This document shows, piece after piece, positions 1-7,137 of a stretch of 7,137 bases of DNA (position 1 is the stretch's first letter; each line of letters starts with the position of its first letter). A program made the position numbers and the translations under genes. The stretch is taken from NCBI GenBank assembly GCA_025358235.1, contig JANYKH010000318.1, positions 1-7,137 of the forward strand, written 5' to 3'. The stretch comes from Chloroflexota bacterium (GTDB lineage: Bacteria > Chloroflexota > Dehalococcoidia > Dehalococcoidales > RBG-16-60-22). The notes beneath the pieces were generated by a model. That model searched no databases, was not told the DNA's origin, and saw only the letters and a program-made list of their open reading frames with translations.

Positions 1-180
1 TTTGAAATAATCAAAAAGGATAATACAATTTGATAATTATAAATAATAATTTCTATTATTTTATTGATAAATTCCTATTATCATTTCCATTCAAAAATTA
101 TTTCTATTGATATATCATAATTATTTTTTAATAAACATTTATTAAAAAGTGATCAAAACTACGTTAAATAAAATTGTGAA
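1..180. other. Very AT-rich non-coding leader upstream of rny
   Basis: Only 26 of these 180 bases are G or C (about 14%), against clearly GC-richer genes that follow. I see no convincing gene on either strand. Short words such as TTCTATT (51-57 and 102-108) and TTGATA (30-35 and 107-112) recur. Several loose sigma-70-like pairs can be drawn, for example TTGATA 107-112 with TAATAA 129-134, but in sequence this AT-rich such matches are expected by chance. The segment probably holds the promoter of the rny cluster. Its sharp compositional edge near 175-180 could also mark an inserted or rapidly drifting intergenic region. Confidence 0.6.
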
Positions 181-184
181 AGAG

Positions 185-227
185 CAGGCCGAGGCATCAG
201 TAATACATTAGCCGGGGCCTGTGAGGA
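185..227 (+). promoter_or_regulatory. rny 5' leader: possible hairpin plus ribosome binding site
   Basis: CAGGCC at 185-190 is the exact reverse complement of GGCCTG at 216-221, giving a 6-bp stem around a 25-nt loop; GGC 193-195 and GCC 211-213 could pair inside it. The stem ends directly next to the Shine-Dalgarno-like TGAGGA at 222-227, which lies 9 nt before the ATG at 237. A structure abutting the ribosome binding site could modulate rny translation, but the stem is short and this is inference. The ribosome binding site itself is well placed. Confidence 0.35.
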
Positions 228-236
228 TATAATAAA

Positions 237-1781
237 ATGGAATTAGCACCTATTTACTACGTCGCACTCATATCCGCCTTGTTTATCGGCGTCGTGTTGG
301 GCGCCATCATCACTCTGGTTTACCGCCGCATGGTGTTTAACCGGCAACTGAGAGTCGCCGAACGCAAAGCCGCCAAAATGGTTGGTGATGCACGCACCGA
401 AGCCAAGGATATCACTACGGAAGCCCGTGAAGAAGCCAAGAAAGCCAAGACCGCCCAGGAAACCGAATACCGGGACCGCCGGGCGGAAATTCAGCGGTCT
501 GAAAACCGCCTGAACCAGAAGAGCGAACACCTTGACCGGAAACTGGAAGCCGTTGACCAGCGCGAGCGCGGACTGGCCAACCGTGAGAAGGAAATGGATA
601 ATCTCCGCGCGCAGATCCAGGAAATCAAAGACAAGCAATTGAAGCAACTGGAAATCGTAGCCGGCATGTCACAGGAAGATGCCAAAACCCTGCTGCTTCA
701 GGCCATGGAATCAGAAACCAAGCAGGAAACTTCCCGCCGCCTGCGAGATTGGGAAGCCAAGCTCAAGGTAGAAGCCAATGAAAAGGCCCAGGACATTCTG
801 GCCCAGGCTATCCAGCGCAGCGCCTCGGAAGTCGTCGCAGAAACTACGGTTTCCGTAGTCCCGCTGCCCAACGATGAAATGAAGGGACGCCTGATCGGCC
901 GCGAAGGCCGCAACATCCGCGCCCTTGAACAGGCCACCGGCGTCGATCTGATTATCGATGATACGCCCGAGGCTGTAACTATCTCCAGCTTTGACCCGGT
1001 AAGACGGGAAGTAACGAGGCTGGCCCTGACCAAACTGATTTTGGACGGGAGAATTCACCCCGCCCGCATCGAAGAGGTTGTGGCCAAAGCCCGTGAAGAA
1101 GTAGACGCTGATATTCAGGCCGCCGGTGAAAAGGCCGCCTATGAAGAGGGCGTACACGGACTGCATCCGGAACTCATCAAGCTGCTGGGCAGGCTGAAAT
1201 ACCGCACCAGCTACGGCCAGAACGTGCTGGCCCACAGCATCGAGGTATCTTACATGGCGGGCATGATCGCTTCGGAAATCGGGGCGAACGTGGGTCTGGC
1301 CAAACGCGCCGGCTTGCTGCATGACATCGGCAAGGCTGTTGATCATGAAGTGGAAGGAACGCACGCCCAGATCGGCGCCGATATCGTCAAGCAGTGGGAT
1401 AAATCTCCGGAGGTTGTCAAAGGCATCTCCGAGCACCACATGGAAATGGGTACCGTCAGCTTCTGGGGCTACCTGGTCTCAGCGGCGGACGCCATCAGCA
1501 GCGCCCGGCCCGGAGCCAGACGTGAATCGCTGGATTCCTACCTCAAGAGACTGCGCGCACTGGAAGATATTGCCAACAGTTTCAAGGGCGTGGAGAAATC
1601 ATACGCCATCCAGGCGGGCCGCGAAGTGCGCATCCTGGTAAAGCCGGATGAAATCGATGATCTGGGCGCCATGAGACTGGCCCGGGACATCGCGAAAAAG
1701 GCCGAAGAAACACTGGATTACCCCGGCCAGATCCGCGTGACGGTAATACGCGAAACGAGAGCCGTGGATTACGCGAAATAA
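237..1781 (+). CDS. rny: Ribonuclease Y (membrane-anchored endoribonuclease)
   Basis: RNase Y is a membrane-tethered endonuclease that starts mRNA decay and processing in many bacteria lacking RNase E. The 514-aa length is typical. Visible domains in order: one N-terminal membrane segment (about residues 7-29, followed by RR), a long charged coiled coil (about 35-195), a KH RNA-binding domain with the [10 protein letters not shown] motif at 218-227, and an HD phosphohydrolase domain with His333, the His362-Asp363 pair in [12 protein letters not shown], His400-His401 and Asp418 in [15 protein letters not shown] as likely metal ligands. The C-terminal region (about 450-514) matches the family's conserved tail. 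The ATG at 237 is chosen because it has TGAGGA 9 nt upstream and puts the membrane helix at the N terminus. The gene heads a cluster with ymdB 30 nt downstream, a conserved pairing in bacteria. Nothing is missing or broken. Confidence 0.97.
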
Positions 1782-1784
1782 GAG

Positions 1785-1811
1785 AAAGGACCGGGGCGTC
1801 GCCCTGATTGA
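1785..1811 (+). promoter_or_regulatory. Hairpin-bridged ribosome binding site of ymdB
   Basis: No Shine-Dalgarno sequence lies at normal distance from the ymdB ATG at 1812. The nearest is AAAGGA at 1785-1790, 21 nt away. Between them GGGC (1794-1797) and GCCC (1801-1804) form a 4-bp stem with a GTC loop, extended by a G-U pair (1793/1805). Folding out these 13 nt leaves an effective spacing of 8 nt. The start cannot move upstream because 1809-1811 is an in-frame TGA. The hairpin function is inference; simple translational coupling from rny is the alternative. Confidence 0.35.
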
Positions 1812-2579
1812 ATGAAATTTCTAGTAGTAGGTGATGTTATCGGCCGTCCCGGCCGCCAGGTCCTGAACCAGTTTCTGCCGCGTCTGCGGAAAGAGCTGGG
1901 TCTGGACATGGTAATAGTTAACGGGGAAAACTCCGCGGGCGGGTTCGGGCTTAATCTCCAATCAGCCATGGAAATGTATGATGCCGGCACGGATATTATC
2001 ACGTCCGGCAACCACATCTGGGCTCAAAAAGAGATTCTGCCCCACCTGAACGGAGAACTCCCCATTTTGCGCCCGCTGAACTATCCGCCGGGGGTGCCGG
2101 GGCGGGGATTTATCGTTACGGAAAAAGCTATCATCGTCAATCTCATCGGACGCACCTTTATCGGCGATTTTGACTGCCCCTTCCGGTGCATGGACGCACT
2201 GTTGGACCAACTGCCCAAGACGCCAAAGATCATTATCATCGATTTTCATGCCGAAGCAACGAGTGAAAAACAGGCGATGGGCTGGTACCTGGATGGGCGT
2301 GTCAGCGCCGTGCTGGGCACGCACACCCATGTCGGGACAATAGATACAAGGGTCTTACCTCACGGCACCGCCTTTGTCAGCGACATCGGCATGACCGGCC
2401 CGATTGATTCCGTCATCGGGGATGATATTGACCTGGTGATACAGCGTTTTCTCACCAAAATGCCCAACCGGCTGTCCGTCGGCAAAGGCAAAGCGGTCTT
2501 AAACGCAATTATGGTCACCGCAGACGAGACAACCGGACGGGCCACCGCGATCGAGCGCATTACCAGGATGGAACAGTGA
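1812..2579 (+). CDS. ymdB: YmdB-family metallophosphoesterase (TIGR00282 type)
   Basis: This is a binuclear-metal phosphodiesterase of the YmdB family. In Bacillus subtilis YmdB acts on 2',3'-cyclic nucleotides and influences biofilm and motility decisions; the physiological substrate here is unknown. The metal-site residues fall where the family has them: Asp8 in VVGDVIGRPGR, Glu39-Asn40 in VNGENSAGGFG, Asn67-His68 in TSGNHIW, His146 in DFHAEATSEK, and His171/His173 in GTHTHVGT. The length of 255 aa is slightly under that of well-studied members but complete. The ATG at 1812 is fixed by an in-frame TGA just upstream and by Asp8 lying 8 residues in. It follows rny by 30 nt and its TGA stop overlaps the GTG start of the PHP gene by 4 nt, indicating co-translation. 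A cytoplasmic enzyme, with no signal peptide or membrane segment. Confidence 0.95.
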   Translation: MKFLVVGDVIGRPGRQVLNQFLPRLRKELGLDMVIVNGENSAGGFGLNLQSAMEMYDAGTDIITSGNHIWAQKEILPHLNGELPILRPLNYPPGVPGRGFIVTEKAIIVNLIGRTFIGDFDCPFRCMDALLDQLPKTPKIIIIDFHAEATSEKQAMGWYLDGRVSAVLGTHTHVGTIDTRVLPHGTAFVSDIGMTGPIDSVIGDDIDLVIQRFLTKMPNRLSVGKGKAVLNAIMVTADETTGRATAIERITRMEQ

Positions 2580-3424
2580 GCGGAGTCGACCTTCACCTGC
2601 ATTCCAACGCATCGGACGGCCGATTGTCACCTTCAGATCTGGTAAAAAAGGCGGCGGGGGTGGGGCTGCATGTCATTGCGCTGGCGGATCATGACACCGT
2701 CAACGGAGTGCAGGAAGCGCTGGACACGGCTCGCCAGTTTGAATCTTTGCAGGTAATACCCTGTGTGGAAATAAGCACAGATATTGAAGGCGGCGAAGTC
2801 CACATACTGGGGTATTTTATAGACTATAAAAACCCTGATCTCAAGACAAAGCTGGCCGAATTCCGGGATTCCCGTGAAGGCCGGGCAGAAAAAATGGTCT
2901 CCAAATTGGCGGGGTTAGGGTTGAAACTGGAATGGGAACGGGTTAAACAGATTGCAGGAGACGGTTCTATCGGCCGCCCCCATATCGCCCAGGCGCTGCT
3001 TGAAAAAGGGTATATTCCCAGCCTGAGAGAGGCTTTTTCATGGTATATCGGCCAGGACGGGCCGGCCTTCGTAGAAAGACAGAAAATGACCCCGGTGGAG
3101 GCCGTAACCATGGTTTTAAAGGCCAGCGGACTACCGGTAATGGCTCACCCCTTCACGGTCAACGATCCCGAAGCGGTGGTCGCTGAGTTGGCGCCGGCGG
3201 GATTGGTGGGAATTGAGGCTTACTATACCAATTCCAGCGCGGAACAAATTAACAAACTGCTGCGACTGGCTAACAAGCATAAATTGATTGTTACCGGGGG
3301 CAGCGACTATCATGGTCTTGATGATGGGACAGATACCCCGTTGGGGACGATAGACGTGCCCATGTCAGCAGCAGAAAACCTCATCGCGCTGGCAAGGGAA
3401 AGGAAACTGGTTTGTGACCGGTAA
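2576..3424 (+). CDS. PHP-domain phosphoesterase (YciV/RNase AM-like)
   Basis: A stand-alone PHP (polymerase and histidinol phosphatase) domain metal-dependent phosphoesterase of 282 aa. Ligand motifs visible in order: His7-x-His9 with Asp14 (DLHLHSNASDG), Asp38-His39-Asp40 (ALADHDTVNG), Glu65 (CVEIST), His76 (VHILGYF), Arg134-Pro-His136 (GRPHIAQALLEKG), His191 (VMAHPF), and Asp244-x-His246 (GGSDYHG). The GRPHIA block and overall layout match the YciV/TrpH group, whose studied members remove 3'-phosphate from 3',5'-nucleoside bisphosphates (pAp) and act as 5'-3' exonuclease on short RNA. That activity is a family-based inference here. The GTG start at 2576 has AGGA at 2565-2568 (7 nt spacing) and overlaps the ymdB stop by 4 nt. 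Its place after RNase Y and YmdB suits a role in RNA fragment or nucleotide turnover. Confidence 0.9.
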   Translation: MSGVDLHLHSNASDGRLSPSDLVKKAAGVGLHVIALADHDTVNGVQEALDTARQFESLQVIPCVEISTDIEGGEVHILGYFIDYKNPDLKTKLAEFRDSREGRAEKMVSKLAGLGLKLEWERVKQIAGDGSIGRPHIAQALLEKGYIPSLREAFSWYIGQDGPAFVERQKMTPVEAVTMVLKASGLPVMAHPFTVNDPEAVVAELAPAGLVGIEAYYTNSSAEQINKLLRLANKHKLIVTGGSDYHGLDDGTDTPLGTIDVPMSAAENLIALARERKLVCDR

Positions 3425-3432
3425 ATAGCCCG

Positions 3433-4125
3433 ATGGTCATTCGGTTCATTTTCCTTGTTTTCGGAGCCTACGTTCTCGGTTCTATTCCAGTCTCTTACCT
3501 GATCGGGCGTCACCGTAAGGTAGATCTCGCTCGTTCAGGGACAGGGCAGGTAGGGGCGGGGAATCTGGCGCGGATGGCCCATTCCAAGAAACTGGGTGTC
3601 ACCGCGGGACTAATTGACGCCGCCAAAGGCGTCTTCGCAGTCTGGCTGGGTTACAGTCTAGGCCTGGATTTAAGCCTGCAAATTTGGGTCGGCCTTGCAG
3701 TAATCGCGGGTCATAACTGGTCGATATTTTTAAATTTCAAAGGGGGGCGGGGCGTCGCTATCGTTATCGGATTGATCTGGGCGCTCCTGTTTAACCCGGA
3801 ATATTCTATTTGGATACCCATATTATATGTGGTGATCGGTTTATCGCTGGTGGCTTTAATACACAGCACCCCTTTGCCTGTACTTGTAATGACGGCCTTA
3901 TTGCCCGTCTTCTCCGCGGTGTTTATGCACGATTACGGGGTTACCGGGGCTTTCATCGCTTTACTGGCTGTGGTAGTTTTGAAAAGGTTGTTACCGTCCC
4001 GCAGGGCATTGACGGTTAACCGCCACGTCATGATAAACAGGTTGCTTTATGACCGGGACATTAAAGACAGTAAAGTCTGGATGTACCGGGAAAGTACCGA
4101 AGAAAAGAAGGAAATCAACCCGTGA
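3433..4125 (+). CDS. PlsY-like acyl-phosphate:glycerol-3-phosphate acyltransferase, divergent
   Basis: An integral membrane protein of 230 aa related to PlsY, which transfers an acyl group from acyl-phosphate to glycerol-3-phosphate in the first step of phospholipid synthesis. The three family motifs are recognisable: GSIPVSYLIGR (16-26), SGTGQVGAGNLAR (35-47) and NFKGGRGVAI (101-110), plus His94 in AGHNW. Hydrophobic segments lie near 3-23, 55-75, 82-100, 107-120, 126-143 and 148-185. Motif 2 departs from the usual GSGNxGATN (Thr, Gln and Gly replace Ser, Asn and Thr), and the protein has a charged tail of about 40 residues (189-230) beyond the usual length near 200, so it may be a paralogue with altered substrate. 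The ATG lies 8 nt after the PHP stop with no clear Shine-Dalgarno, suggesting coupling. Its stop overlaps the next start by 4 nt. I leave the symbol blank because of the divergence. Confidence 0.85.
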   Translation: MVIRFIFLVFGAYVLGSIPVSYLIGRHRKVDLARSGTGQVGAGNLARMAHSKKLGVTAGLIDAAKGVFAVWLGYSLGLDLSLQIWVGLAVIAGHNWSIFLNFKGGRGVAIVIGLIWALLFNPEYSIWIPILYVVIGLSLVALIHSTPLPVLVMTALLPVFSAVFMHDYGVTGAFIALLAVVVLKRLLPSRRALTVNRHVMINRLLYDRDIKDSKVWMYRESTEEKKEINP

Positions 4126-4607
4126 AATGCGGTGAACATACTGAAGCCGAGACCAACCTGCGGTGCGGCAAGTGCGAAAAACTGATCTGCCCGAAATGCA
4201 TGGTGCAAACCCCGGTGGGGGCGAGGTGCCACGATTGTGCTGGCTTGAAGCGTCTGCCCGTTTTTGACATGAGTGCGGCCTTCTATATGAGGGGTATTGC
4301 GGCAGGACTGATAGCGGCATTTGTTGCCGGCTTTGCCTGGAGTGTAGTTGAAGGTGTAATACATTTCTTCTATGTTGGGTTATTAATAGCGGCGGGGATG
4401 GGATGGGGGGTGGGGGAAGTGATAAGCCGGGCGGTCAACCGTAAACAAGGGACCGGGTTGGCGGTGGTGGCGGGGGTGAGTATGGTAGTTTGTTTTGTAG
4501 TCTATCTTCTTTTTTCAGGGGGACTGCATTTCAGTTTTATGAGTATTGGTCTCGGGCTCGTTTCGCTCATAATTGGGATATATACTGCTGTAAAACATTT
4601 CAAATAG
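4122..4607 (+). CDS. B-box-type zinc-finger membrane protein of unknown function
   Basis: A 161-aa protein with an N-terminal zinc-binding module and a hydrophobic C-terminal part. Putative ligands are Cys3, His6, Cys15, Cys18, Cys23, Cys26, Cys36 and Cys39, in a CxxH...CxxC...CxxC...CxxC order resembling bacterial B-box zinc fingers (the stretch CPKCMVQTPVGARCHDC is characteristic). Four hydrophobic segments follow, roughly 57-75, 78-98, 112-132 and 138-157. I recognise the architecture, common in Chloroflexota and Actinobacteria, but no function; a sensing or protein-interaction role is possible. The GTG start at 4122 overlaps the plsY-like stop by 4 nt and places the first CxxH at residue 3. 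The gene ends in TAG, the only complete gene in the window to do so. Its coding strand has a strong G-run cluster at 4394-4416. Confidence 0.8.
   Translation: MKCGEHTEAETNLRCGKCEKLICPKCMVQTPVGARCHDCAGLKRLPVFDMSAAFYMRGIAAGLIAAFVAGFAWSVVEGVIHFFYVGLLIAAGMGWGVGEVISRAVNRKQGTGLAVVAGVSMVVCFVVYLLFSGGLHFSFMSIGLGLVSLIIGIYTAVKHFK
4394..4416 (+). other. Potential G-quadruplex inside the zinc-finger membrane gene
   Basis: Four G-runs of 4, 3, 6 and 5 bases are separated by loops of only AT, AT and T, satisfying the classical G3+N1-7 pattern. It lies on the coding strand, so it would form in the mRNA as well as in DNA. The encoded residues are in the glycine-rich loop after the second membrane segment, so coding for Gly/Trp/Met may explain part of the G richness, though the six- and five-base runs use G at synonymous positions. 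Folding in the cell is not shown. Confidence 0.5.
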
Positions 4608-4751: not shown

Positions 4752-5939
4752 ATGAGGAAAGTTGCAGTTCTCGGGGTGGGGGTAACTAAATTTACAGGAG
4801 CGCAAGAGAAAACCGGGGTGGAACTTTTTGCGGAAGCCGCGGGGGACGCGTTCCTCGACGCAAGGATGAAACCCAAGGACATTCAGGCGCTGTTTATCGG
4901 CAACGTACTCGGTGATTTCTCCGAAGGCCAGGGAATGCCCCAGTGCCTCGCGGCGGAAAACATCGGCTGTTTTAACATTCCCGCTAACCGTTATGAAGGT
5001 GCGTGCGCTTCCGGCAGTATGGCCATCCGCGACGCATTTTTACTGATCGCCAACGGCGCTTATGACGTGATCATGGCAGGCGGACTGGAAAGAGCGGCCA
5101 CCATGGGCACTCCTCTCGCCACCCGTACTTTCGCCATGTTCAGCGATGCTCGGTATGAATACCCCGCTGGCATCACATTCCCTGCCGTTTTCGCGCTTCT
5201 CGCTCACTTATATTCGGATAAATACAAAATACCGGTTGACCGGCTTAGGGAACAGATGGCCCGTGTATCCATCCAAGCCTGCAAGCACGGCTCGGTCAAT
5301 CCCAAAGCCCAATTCTTCGGCAAGTACGGCGATTTGACCATAGATAAAGTCCTCAAGGCTTTTGTGGTGGCATCCCCCCTGGGATTACACGACTGCTGCC
5401 CGTTTTCTGACGGCGCTTCATCAGTGATCCTGGTCTCGGAAGACATCGCCAAACGCATGACAGATAAACCGATATGGATTACCGGCGCAGGCCAGGCTTC
5501 TTCCGGCACTCTTTCCAACCAGAAAGCCTATCTGCCGCGAATTTATGCCCGTGAAGTCGCTTCGAAGCAAGCCTACGCCATGGCCGGTATCAAGCCGGAT
5601 GATGTAGATTTGATTGAATTACACGATTGTTTCAGCATCGCATCAATAATAGCTTCGGAGAGCCTCGGCTTCTTCGATTACGGCAAGGCCGGCGAAGCCT
5701 GGGAAAAAGGCCAGGCGGACATCGGCGGCAAAATCGCCATCTGCCCGTCCGGCGGTCTTAAAGCCAAGGGGCATCCCATCGGGGCCACGGGCGGCGGCCA
5801 GGTATATGAAGTAGTAAAACAACTACGAGGGGAAGCTATTCCCGCCAACCAGGTCCCGAACGCCAAAATCGGCATGACGGACACTCTCGGCGGCGAGGGC
5901 GGCACTCTGGTGAACCTGATTCTGGAAAAGGGTTATTAA
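4752..5939 (+). CDS. Thiolase (SCP-x/acetyl-CoA acetyltransferase-like)
   Basis: A 395-aa thiolase-superfamily enzyme of the SCP2/non-specific lipid-transfer type, which cleaves a 3-oxoacyl-CoA with CoA (or runs the reverse condensation). Numbered from this ATG, the nucleophile is Cys85 in EGACASGS; His291 lies in ELHDCFSIASI and His341 in KGHPIGATGGG. The C-terminal active-site loop is GGEGG (about 380-384) instead of the CxGGG of classical thiolases, as usual for this branch. An in-frame TTG at 4749 would add one residue, but GGAGG at 4740-4744 is 7 nt from the ATG and only 4 nt from the TTG, so the ATG is preferred. A DUF35 gene follows after 24 nt; such pairs form complexes, for example BbsA/BbsB in toluene degradation and archaeal thiolase-DUF35. 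The retained Cys argues for a thiolase over a steroid side-chain aldolase. The substrate is not determinable here. Confidence 0.92.
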   Translation: MRKVAVLGVGVTKFTGAQEKTGVELFAEAAGDAFLDARMKPKDIQALFIGNVLGDFSEGQGMPQCLAAENIGCFNIPANRYEGACASGSMAIRDAFLLIANGAYDVIMAGGLERAATMGTPLATRTFAMFSDARYEYPAGITFPAVFALLAHLYSDKYKIPVDRLREQMARVSIQACKHGSVNPKAQFFGKYGDLTIDKVLKAFVVASPLGLHDCCPFSDGASSVILVSEDIAKRMTDKPIWITGAGQASSGTLSNQKAYLPRIYAREVASKQAYAMAGIKPDDVDLIELHDCFSIASIIASESLGFFDYGKAGEAWEKGQADIGGKIAICPSGGLKAKGHPIGATGGGQVYEVVKQLRGEAIPANQVPNAKIGMTDTLGGEGGTLVNLILEKGY

Positions 5940-6420: not shown

Positions 6421-7137
6421 ATGGTTATTGAAGAAAAAAAGAAAAAAAGCATTAACCGCCTGAAGACGATGTACCCGCTGCGGGCGCTCGTTGATGGCAT
6501 GTATGAAAAGGCAGTTGAGGCCAGCAATGAAGGCAAGCCGGTCGCCTGGTGCATGGTGAACTGGTGGGGCGGGGACATTCTGCTGCGGGCCATGGATGTG
6601 GCCTGCGTTTACCCGGAAGACTACGGCGCGGCCTGCGCGGCTTTTGGGGCGGCCCCCAATTACCTCGCCCGCTCTGATGCGGACGGATTTCCCACCCACC
6701 TCTGCGGCTACGCCCGCAATTGCCTGGGCTACGCCTCTTATCTTAAAGAACTGGGCGTGATCCCCCCCGGCGCCCCCATGGCGGGTATGCCAAAGCCGGA
6801 TATCATCCTGGGGTCAGGCTATTTCTGCGATACGCGGTTCAAATGGTTTCAGGCCATGGGCCGGTATCTGGACGCGCCCATGTGGGTGCTGGAAATGCCC
6901 CACCCCGGCGTGAACGAAAACCGCCTCCCGGGATCAAAGGAACATGATATCCACTTTCTCGTCAATGAACTGTAGGAATTTGCCGCGTTCATCGAAAATA
7001 AGCTGGGTAAGAAAATGCCGTGGGATAAAGTAGATCAACTGGTCACGGACGGCATCGAGATGAACCGGGTCTGGCATGAAGTGAACGAACTGCGCAAAGC
7101 CAAACCCTGCCCCATGCACTCCCGCGATTTCTGGAGC
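6421..7137 (+). CDS. 2-hydroxyacyl-CoA dehydratase/benzoyl-CoA reductase-type subunit, partial, with in-frame TAG
   Basis: The N-terminal part of a HgdB/BcrB/BcrC-family subunit (COG1775 type), an iron-sulfur enzyme that dehydrates 2-hydroxyacyl-CoA or reduces benzoyl-CoA when energised by an ATP-dependent activator. The first 184 codons are open, codon 185 is TAG (6973-6975), and the same frame continues 54 codons to the window edge with typical family sequence, including ELRKAKPCPMHSRDFWS. Likely cluster ligands are Cys95 in HLCGYARNCLGYA and Cys136 in GSGYFCDTRFKWF; the family's third Cys and second domain would lie beyond the window. A 184-aa product would therefore lack essential parts. 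Either this is a nonsense-disrupted pseudogene, the TAG is a base error, or it is decoded. The ATG has a modest AGGGTGA upstream at 6411-6417. It sits 49 nt after the DUF35 gene. Full family length is usually near 400 aa or more. Confidence 0.85.
6973..6975 (+). other. In-frame amber codon in dehydratase gene
   Basis: TAG interrupts the phrase FLVNEL-TAG-EFAAFIENKLGKK. From my memory of the family, this helix position usually holds Lys, Glu or Gln, all one base from TAG (AAG, GAG, CAG). No insertion or deletion is needed to keep the frame, so this is a single-codon interruption, not a frameshift. Whether it is read through, mutated or a sequencing error is unresolved. Confidence 0.9.

What the first reader, a model, noticed from the sequence alone, without database searches (positions are those of the whole stretch)
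6973..6975. In-frame TAG inside an otherwise intact 2-hydroxyacyl-CoA dehydratase gene: amber decoding, nonsense mutation or base error
The frame before and after the TAG encodes one continuous family protein, and the 54 codons downstream have no other stop and keep family-typical sequence (for example RKAKPCPMHSRDFWS). Anaerobes with pyrrolysine machinery read TAG as an amino acid, and this enzyme family is not among the well-known pyrrolysine proteins (methylamine methyltransferases), so true decoding would be new. Against this, the zinc-finger gene at 4122-4607 ends naturally in TAG, and a single base change from AAG, GAG or CAG explains it equally well.
Basis: partly seen in the sequence, partly recalled or inferred. 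Interest (0 to 1): 0.7.

Follow-up and report, generated by a model that had tools for sequence, protein, structure and literature searches.

The report
Ordinary nonsense codon in dehydratase gene
A TAG stop codon interrupts an otherwise open enzyme gene in the draft genome of an uncultured bacterium, and since the searches of that incomplete genome found no sign of machinery that reads TAG as an amino acid, it is likely an ordinary recent mutation or a base error, not a new use of the genetic code.

Summary
In detail: codon 185 of a 2-hydroxyacyl-CoA dehydratase gene (6421 to the contig end) is TAG, and the 54 codons after it stay open and family-typical. Amber decoding is not supported. In the window's own draft genome (76% complete) searches found no PylS N- or C-terminal protein, no PylD over cut-off, no MttB, and no CUA anticodon among the 24 tRNA genes found (a set that lacks six amino acids, so this part is weak). 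No relative of 60 has PylS over cut-off. At this codon 18 distinct homologous loci have Lys, Arg, Glu or Gly codons; the nearest listed full-length homologue (89% identical over the window's stretch) has Arg. TAG is a normal stop here (93 of 349 scored gene ends). The same assembly holds a second gene, a nitronate monooxygenase, cut by in-frame TAA at a mostly-Glu site, so interruptions are not amber-specific. Both lie within 340 bases of a contig end, so a base error or strain mixture is open. Best reading: a recent single-base nonsense change, real (about 0.5) or an assembly error (about 0.44); decoding about 0.03. Low interest; read-level data would decide mutation versus error.

The parts
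6421..7137 (+). 2-hydroxyacyl-CoA dehydratase gene (HGD-D family, large/alpha-type subunit), interrupted by TAG and cut off by the contig end
   Evidence: PF06050 matches on both sides of the stop; five same-family genomes hold 72-76% identical copies without a stop
6973..6975 (+). in-frame TAG, codon 185
   Evidence: sequence; 18 of 18 distinct homologous loci have Lys, Arg, Glu or Gly codons here
6976..7137 (+). open continuation of the same frame, 54 codons up to the contig end
   Evidence: family match, codon score 0.24, 72% and 74% identical to L063 and L031 over these codons
5964..6371 (+). zinc-ribbon/OB-fold protein (ChsH2-like), partner gene upstream in the same order as in relatives
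   Evidence: PF01796 and PF12172; same order in L063 and L033
4749..5939 (+). thiolase-domain acyltransferase gene, upstream neighbour
   Evidence: PF22691, PF00108; same order in L063 and L033

Best explanation
The TAG at 6973-6975 is likely an ordinary stop codon made by a recent single-base change, probably from a lysine codon AAG, that would end translation after 184 of about 445 residues. It is read here as a real nonsense allele of the sampled population. The cut product is predicted to lack the C-terminal part of the enzyme, with the place of the third cluster cysteine, and so to be inactive (inferred, not tested). Shown: position, open continuation, sense codons in relatives, no Pyl parts in the searched assembly. 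Inferred: that the change is recent, that it came from AAG, that it is real and not a base error, and that the enzyme is lost.
For: No PylS_N, PylS_C (0 of 61 genomes over cut-off, own genome without any match) or MttB match, no PylD over cut-off, no CUA anticodon among 24 tRNA genes. At the codon 18 of 18 distinct homologous loci have AAG/AAA/AGA/AGG/GAA/GGC/GGT, and 132 of 133 spanning homologous proteins have R 71, K 37, G 18, T 2, N 2, M 1, E 1, the last a gap. TAG ends 93 of 349 scored genes in 496 kb of the own genome, and coding-like extensions are not enriched after TAG (9 of 93) against TAA (14 of 170) and TGA (14 of 86). A second gene of the assembly, a nitronate monooxygenase on C87, is cut by TAA where 3 of 5 relatives have Glu. 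Two other genomes' homologues carry in-frame stops, TAG and tandem TGA-TAG, at other places in otherwise open genes. Passages of PMC13288992 report 125-527 pseudogenes per high-quality sediment MAG, in a set that includes Dehalococcoidia.
Against: The stop lies 165 bases from the contig end and the second one 339 bases from its own contig end; such closeness by chance is about 0.02 for the pair (worked out after seeing them), which favours an assembly error. No further decay is seen on the window's side: of 12 differences from P0080 after the stop, the window has the rarer residue at 6 and P0080 at 6, so a long-standing loss is excluded and a real mutation must be young. On the other side, differences from P0080 are denser after the stop (12 of 54) than before it (12 of 181; Fisher p 0.003), which could hint at relaxed constraint, but P0080, which has no stop, shows nearly the same drop in profile score.
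Confidence: 0.5

Rival explanations
1. The TAG is a wrong consensus base, or a minor-strain base taken into the consensus, near the end of a metagenome contig; the living cell would have a sense codon (Lys or another) and a working gene.
For: The stop begins 165 bases from the contig end and the only other confirmed interruption, TAA in the nitronate monooxygenase of C87, lies at 337-339 of a 10300-base contig; chance of both being so close about 0.02, post hoc. The frame after the stop is not decayed more than that of P0080. The assembly is fragmented: 329 contigs, 76% complete.
Against: Stops in two other genomes' homologues, L073 and L076, lie kilobases from their locus ends, so real interruptions of this gene may exist; 24 of 24 ABC-transporter matches in the own genome have no stop inside, so stops are not strewn through the assembly.
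Confidence: 0.44
2. The TAG is decoded as an amino acid, by pyrrolysine machinery or a suppressor tRNA, and the full enzyme is made.
For: The downstream frame is open and conserved. Pyl systems exist in some Chloroflexi according to passages of PMC5424206. The genome is only 76% complete and contigs under 3,000 bases read as N when fetched (39 of 120 fetched), so genes could be missed; tRNAs for Ala, Asn, Asp, Glu, His and Lys were not found either. L073 shows another TAG in a homologue.
Against: No PylS_N, PylS_C or MttB match and no PylD over cut-off; no PylS over cut-off in 60 relatives; the pylT-like pattern gave one one-mismatch site, as many as the reversed control, with no tRNA there; no homologue has a stop at this codon; TAG is a common stop; the site varies between Arg, Lys and Gly, unlike a conserved catalytic Pyl; another gene is interrupted by TAA.
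Confidence: 0.03
3. The gene is naturally split: the 184-residue part would work alone or with a second part started after the stop.
For: The part before the stop keeps the places of two of the three cysteines aligned with Cys84 and Cys117 of 3o3m.
Against: The other members seen run through this place as one frame; the stop falls inside the conserved helix-rich stretch and the place of the third cysteine (P0068 C380, aligned with Cys346) lies beyond it.
Confidence: 0.02

Closest known systems
Nonsense pseudogenes/alleles and base errors in metagenome-assembled genomes
   Same: One stop in an otherwise open family gene, no decoding parts, relatives with sense codons; stop type not uniform across the assembly (TAG here, TAA in the nitronate monooxygenase).
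   Different: Nothing found that sets it apart, except closeness to the contig end.
Pyrrolysine (amber) decoding, pylTSBCD with methylamine methyltransferases
   Same: In-frame TAG with a conserved frame after it, in an anaerobe-type gene.
   Different: No PylS, no PylD over cut-off, no MttB and no CUA tRNA found; TAG not conserved in the family; site variable.
2-hydroxyacyl-CoA dehydratase / benzoyl-CoA reductase superfamily (HadB 3o3m, MbdO 9g87, BzdO 8s02)
   Same: PF06050 membership; the orthologue P0068 aligns with 3o3m_A over 22-433 (E 7.6e-24) and keeps cysteines at the places of Cys84, 117 and 346.
   Different: P0068 is far under the NCBIfam cut-offs for HadB (109.7 of 750 bits), BzdO (75.7 of 448.6) and BcrB (57.6 of 486.55), so the substrate is unknown.

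Membership tests
Pyrrolysine-decoding system | pyrrolysyl-tRNA synthetase (PylS N- and C-terminal parts) | tested here: not met
   TIGR03912: no match in the own genome. TIGR02367: none in the own genome, 0 of 61 genomes over cut-off; weak matches under cut-off in 47 relatives. Genome 76% complete.
Pyrrolysine-decoding system | tRNA with CUA anticodon (pylT) | tested here: inconclusive
   24 tRNA genes, none CUA; the set lacks six amino acids, so it is incomplete. Pattern search at control level.
Pyrrolysine-decoding system | biosynthesis genes pylBCD | tested here: not met
   Only PylD was searched: three weak matches of 18.6-20.6 bits, cut-off 150.05. PylB and PylC not searched.
Pyrrolysine-decoding system | TAG at the same place in homologues | tested here: not met
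   18 of 18 distinct loci with sense codons; 30 of 31 class-wide matches without a stop, the other being the window.
Genome-wide TAG reassignment | TAG rare or absent as a terminator, frequent inside genes | tested here: not met
   TAG ends 93 of 349 scored genes; extensions after TAG are no more coding-like than after TGA or TAA (about a third of the genome).
Nonsense allele or pseudogene | stop in an otherwise homologous frame, sense codon in relatives, no decoding parts | tested here: met
Nonsense allele or pseudogene | base supported by reads | not testable with these tools
   no reads are held
2-hydroxyacyl-CoA dehydratase family (PF06050) | match to the family profile over its cut-off | tested here: met
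   86.5 bits for the read-through stretch, 42.7 bits for the part before the stop, cut-off 28.4

The most novel reading that the evidence does not exclude
The TAG is translated, by a Pyl or suppressor system lying in the missing quarter of the genome, giving a dehydratase-family enzyme with a TAG-encoded residue outside methylamine methyltransferases.
Probability: 0.03. Interest if true: 0.85.

Novelty: already known. Interest (0 to 1): 0.1.

Why it matters
If decoded, it would be a TAG-encoded residue in an enzyme family where I found none in print (0 papers in the held library with both terms). As an ordinary nonsense codon it matters little, except as a caution: the same draft genome has at least two single-stop interruptions, both near contig ends, and two other genomes have them in this very gene family, so a lone in-frame stop in such assemblies is weak evidence for recoding.

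Tried and rejected
Amber decoding by pyrrolysine machinery: rejected as the main reading. Genome-wide reassignment of TAG: rejected. Looking for the rest of the gene elsewhere in the assembly: the PF06050 fragment on C293 resembles, read by eye, the second (small) subunit of L033, not this gene. First protein search left out full-length relatives because of the tool's length limits; repeated with a full-length alignment (120 of 934 hits listed). Test for faster decay after the stop: unclear, the window ranks 9 of 134 and the stop-free P0080 shows nearly the same drop. A first codon-score scan failed because withheld stretches read N; mended. Of the 37 coding-like extensions, five besides the window were followed: the nitronate monooxygenase is a true interruption, the other four (L113, L105, L130, L197) have no Pfam match and score higher on the opposite strand; the remaining 31 were not tested, only read in the print-out, where several look like the start of a next gene. 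Rfam on the window: nothing.

Full report
Observation. The TAG at 6973-6975 is codon 185 of a gene that begins with ATG at 6421. The 54 codons after it, up to the window's end, are open. Both sides match PF06050 (HGD-D) at consecutive profile positions, 8-101 and 104-155, and the codon score after the stop equals that before it (0.24 and 0.21; other forward frames negative). The window is a whole contig, C37 of genome G000 (1,523,098 bases, 329 contigs, 76% complete), so the gene is cut 162 bases after the stop by the contig end.

Relatives. In 31 genomes of the same family, five hold copies 72-76% identical over the whole stretch with no stop. Of 31 matches in 27 of 393 genomes of the class at E <= 1e-60, only the window's has a stop. 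A scan of public genome contigs gave 17 loci, named as Chloroflexota or Dehalococcoidia-type MAGs with a few others (Desulfotomaculum, Syntrophaceae). Aligning these and seven loci from the genome searches (24 in all; five are the same records twice and one covers only the first part, which leaves 18 distinct loci, one of them the window genome's own paralogue), the codon at this place is AAG 4, AAA 1, AGA 4, AGG 6, GAA 1, GGC 1, GGT 1. None is a stop. Among 133 proteins that span the stretch, of 186 compared, the residue is R 71, K 37, G 18, T 2, N 2, M 1, E 1 and one gap; a protein list cannot show a stop except as a shortened protein. The nearest listed protein, P0080, is 445 residues, 89% identical over 4-239, with Arg. 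TAG is one step from AAG, GAG and CAG; from AGG or AGA it is two or more, so a Lys codon is the likeliest forerunner (inference).

Decoding machinery. In the own genome: no match to PylS_N (TIGR03912), none to PylS_C (TIGR02367), three weak PylD matches of at most 20.6 bits against a cut-off of 150, none to MttB (PF06253). Over 61 genomes (own plus 60 relatives) none passes the PylS_C cut-off; 47 have weak matches, as 13 of 14 control genomes do, only one control (Methanosarcina acetivorans is the one that rings in the PylS_N and MttB controls) over it. The 24 tRNA genes found have 24 different anticodons, none CUA; ARAGORN on the fetched stretches finds none either. This is weak, since tRNAs for Ala, Asn, Asp, Glu, His and Lys are missing too. 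A recalled 13-base pylT pattern gave one site with one mismatch, as did its reversed control, and no tRNA lies there. PylB and PylC were not searched. Against my reading: passages of PMC5424206 say that a group of Chloroflexi has Pyl systems, so the idea is not absurd for this phylum; and contigs under 3,000 bases read N when fetched (39 of 120 contigs, 96,015 of 584,706 bases), so part of the genome may not have been visible.

Use of TAG. In 81 readable fetched contigs plus the window (495,828 bases), 349 gene ends passed a codon-score filter: TAA 170, TAG 93, TGA 86. Coding-like same-frame extensions follow 14 TAA, 9 TAG and 14 TGA. Five of these besides the window were followed. One is a true interruption: a nitronate monooxygenase on C87 whose parts before and after a TAA match PF03060 at 104-273 and 286-330; relatives run through without a stop, and at the place of the TAA three of five aligned relatives have Glu, one Trp, one Pro. 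The other four look like shadows of the opposite strand. So this assembly interrupts genes with more than one kind of stop, which speaks against an amber-specific cause. As a control on general quality, 24 ABC-transporter matches in the genome hold no stop.

Mutation or error. Both interruptions are near contig ends: 165 bases here, 339 on C87; by chance about 0.02 for the pair, reckoned after the fact. This favours an assembly error or strain mixture. The downstream frame shows no one-sided decay: of 12 differences from P0080 after the stop the window has the rarer residue in 6 and P0080 in 6; the window's drop in profile score after the stop ranks 9 of 134, P0080's is nearly as large. Differences from P0080 are nonetheless denser after the stop (12 of 54 against 12 of 181, Fisher p 0.003), which I cannot assign. 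For a real mutation speak two homologues in other genomes with in-frame stops away from contig ends: L073 has TAG at 3022-3024 (window residue 29) and L076 has TGA-TAG at 5441-5446 (window residues 48-49, Trp-Trp), each in a gene otherwise open to its natural end. In these two genomes 15 of 33 and 15 of 19 tRNA loci were read; no CUA anticodon among them. Passages of PMC13288992 give 125-527 pseudogenes per high-quality sediment MAG; passages of PMC8629427 note that in-frame stops in pseudogenes arise most often by single transitions such as from UGG, and warn that such stops mimic recoding. I put a real recent nonsense allele at 0.5 and an error at 0.44; reads would decide.

Function lost. 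The stop-free orthologue P0068 aligns with the alpha subunit of 2-hydroxyisocaproyl-CoA dehydratase, 3o3m_A, with cysteines C94, C135 and C380 at the places of Cys84, Cys117 and Cys346. That these three hold the iron-sulphur cluster is recalled, not taken from a call. A product ended at residue 184 would keep two of the three places. The substrate is unknown: the orthologue is far below all curated cut-offs. The gene stands after a thiolase and a ChsH2-like zinc-ribbon/OB-fold gene, the same order as in L063 and L033.

Verdict. The stop is truly there, but ordinary. Literature searches for Pyl with Dehalococcoidia gave four papers (one looked at, in passages), with the dehydratase none.

Noticed in passing
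L073:3022-3024 (JAUXAE010000037.1, Dehalococcoidales MAG): A homologue of the window gene has an in-frame TAG at the place of window residue 29 (Glu in the window), in a gene otherwise open to its end.
   Followed up: partly
L076:5441-5446 (JAUVWD010000036.1, Chloroflexota MAG): Another homologue has tandem TGA-TAG where the window has Trp-Trp (residues 48-49), otherwise open to its end.
   Followed up: partly
L167:337-339 (G000:C87): Nitronate monooxygenase gene of the same assembly cut by an in-frame TAA, 339 bases from the contig end; relatives run through.
   Followed up: yes
L048 / L002 (G000:C79:1-2154): A second, paralogous dehydratase pair (large and small subunit genes), the large one 52% identical to the window's and free of stops; its small-subunit gene is cut by the contig end, and C293 holds a fitting end piece of a small subunit.
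   Followed up: partly
P0040: A 187-residue homologue on a 12,421-base contig ends within a residue of the window's stop place; whether by a stop or by the contig end could not be seen.
   Followed up: no
window 1-4125: Upstream genes: ribonuclease Y, YmdB-like phosphoesterase, a PHP-domain protein and a PlsY-like acyltransferase.
   Followed up: no
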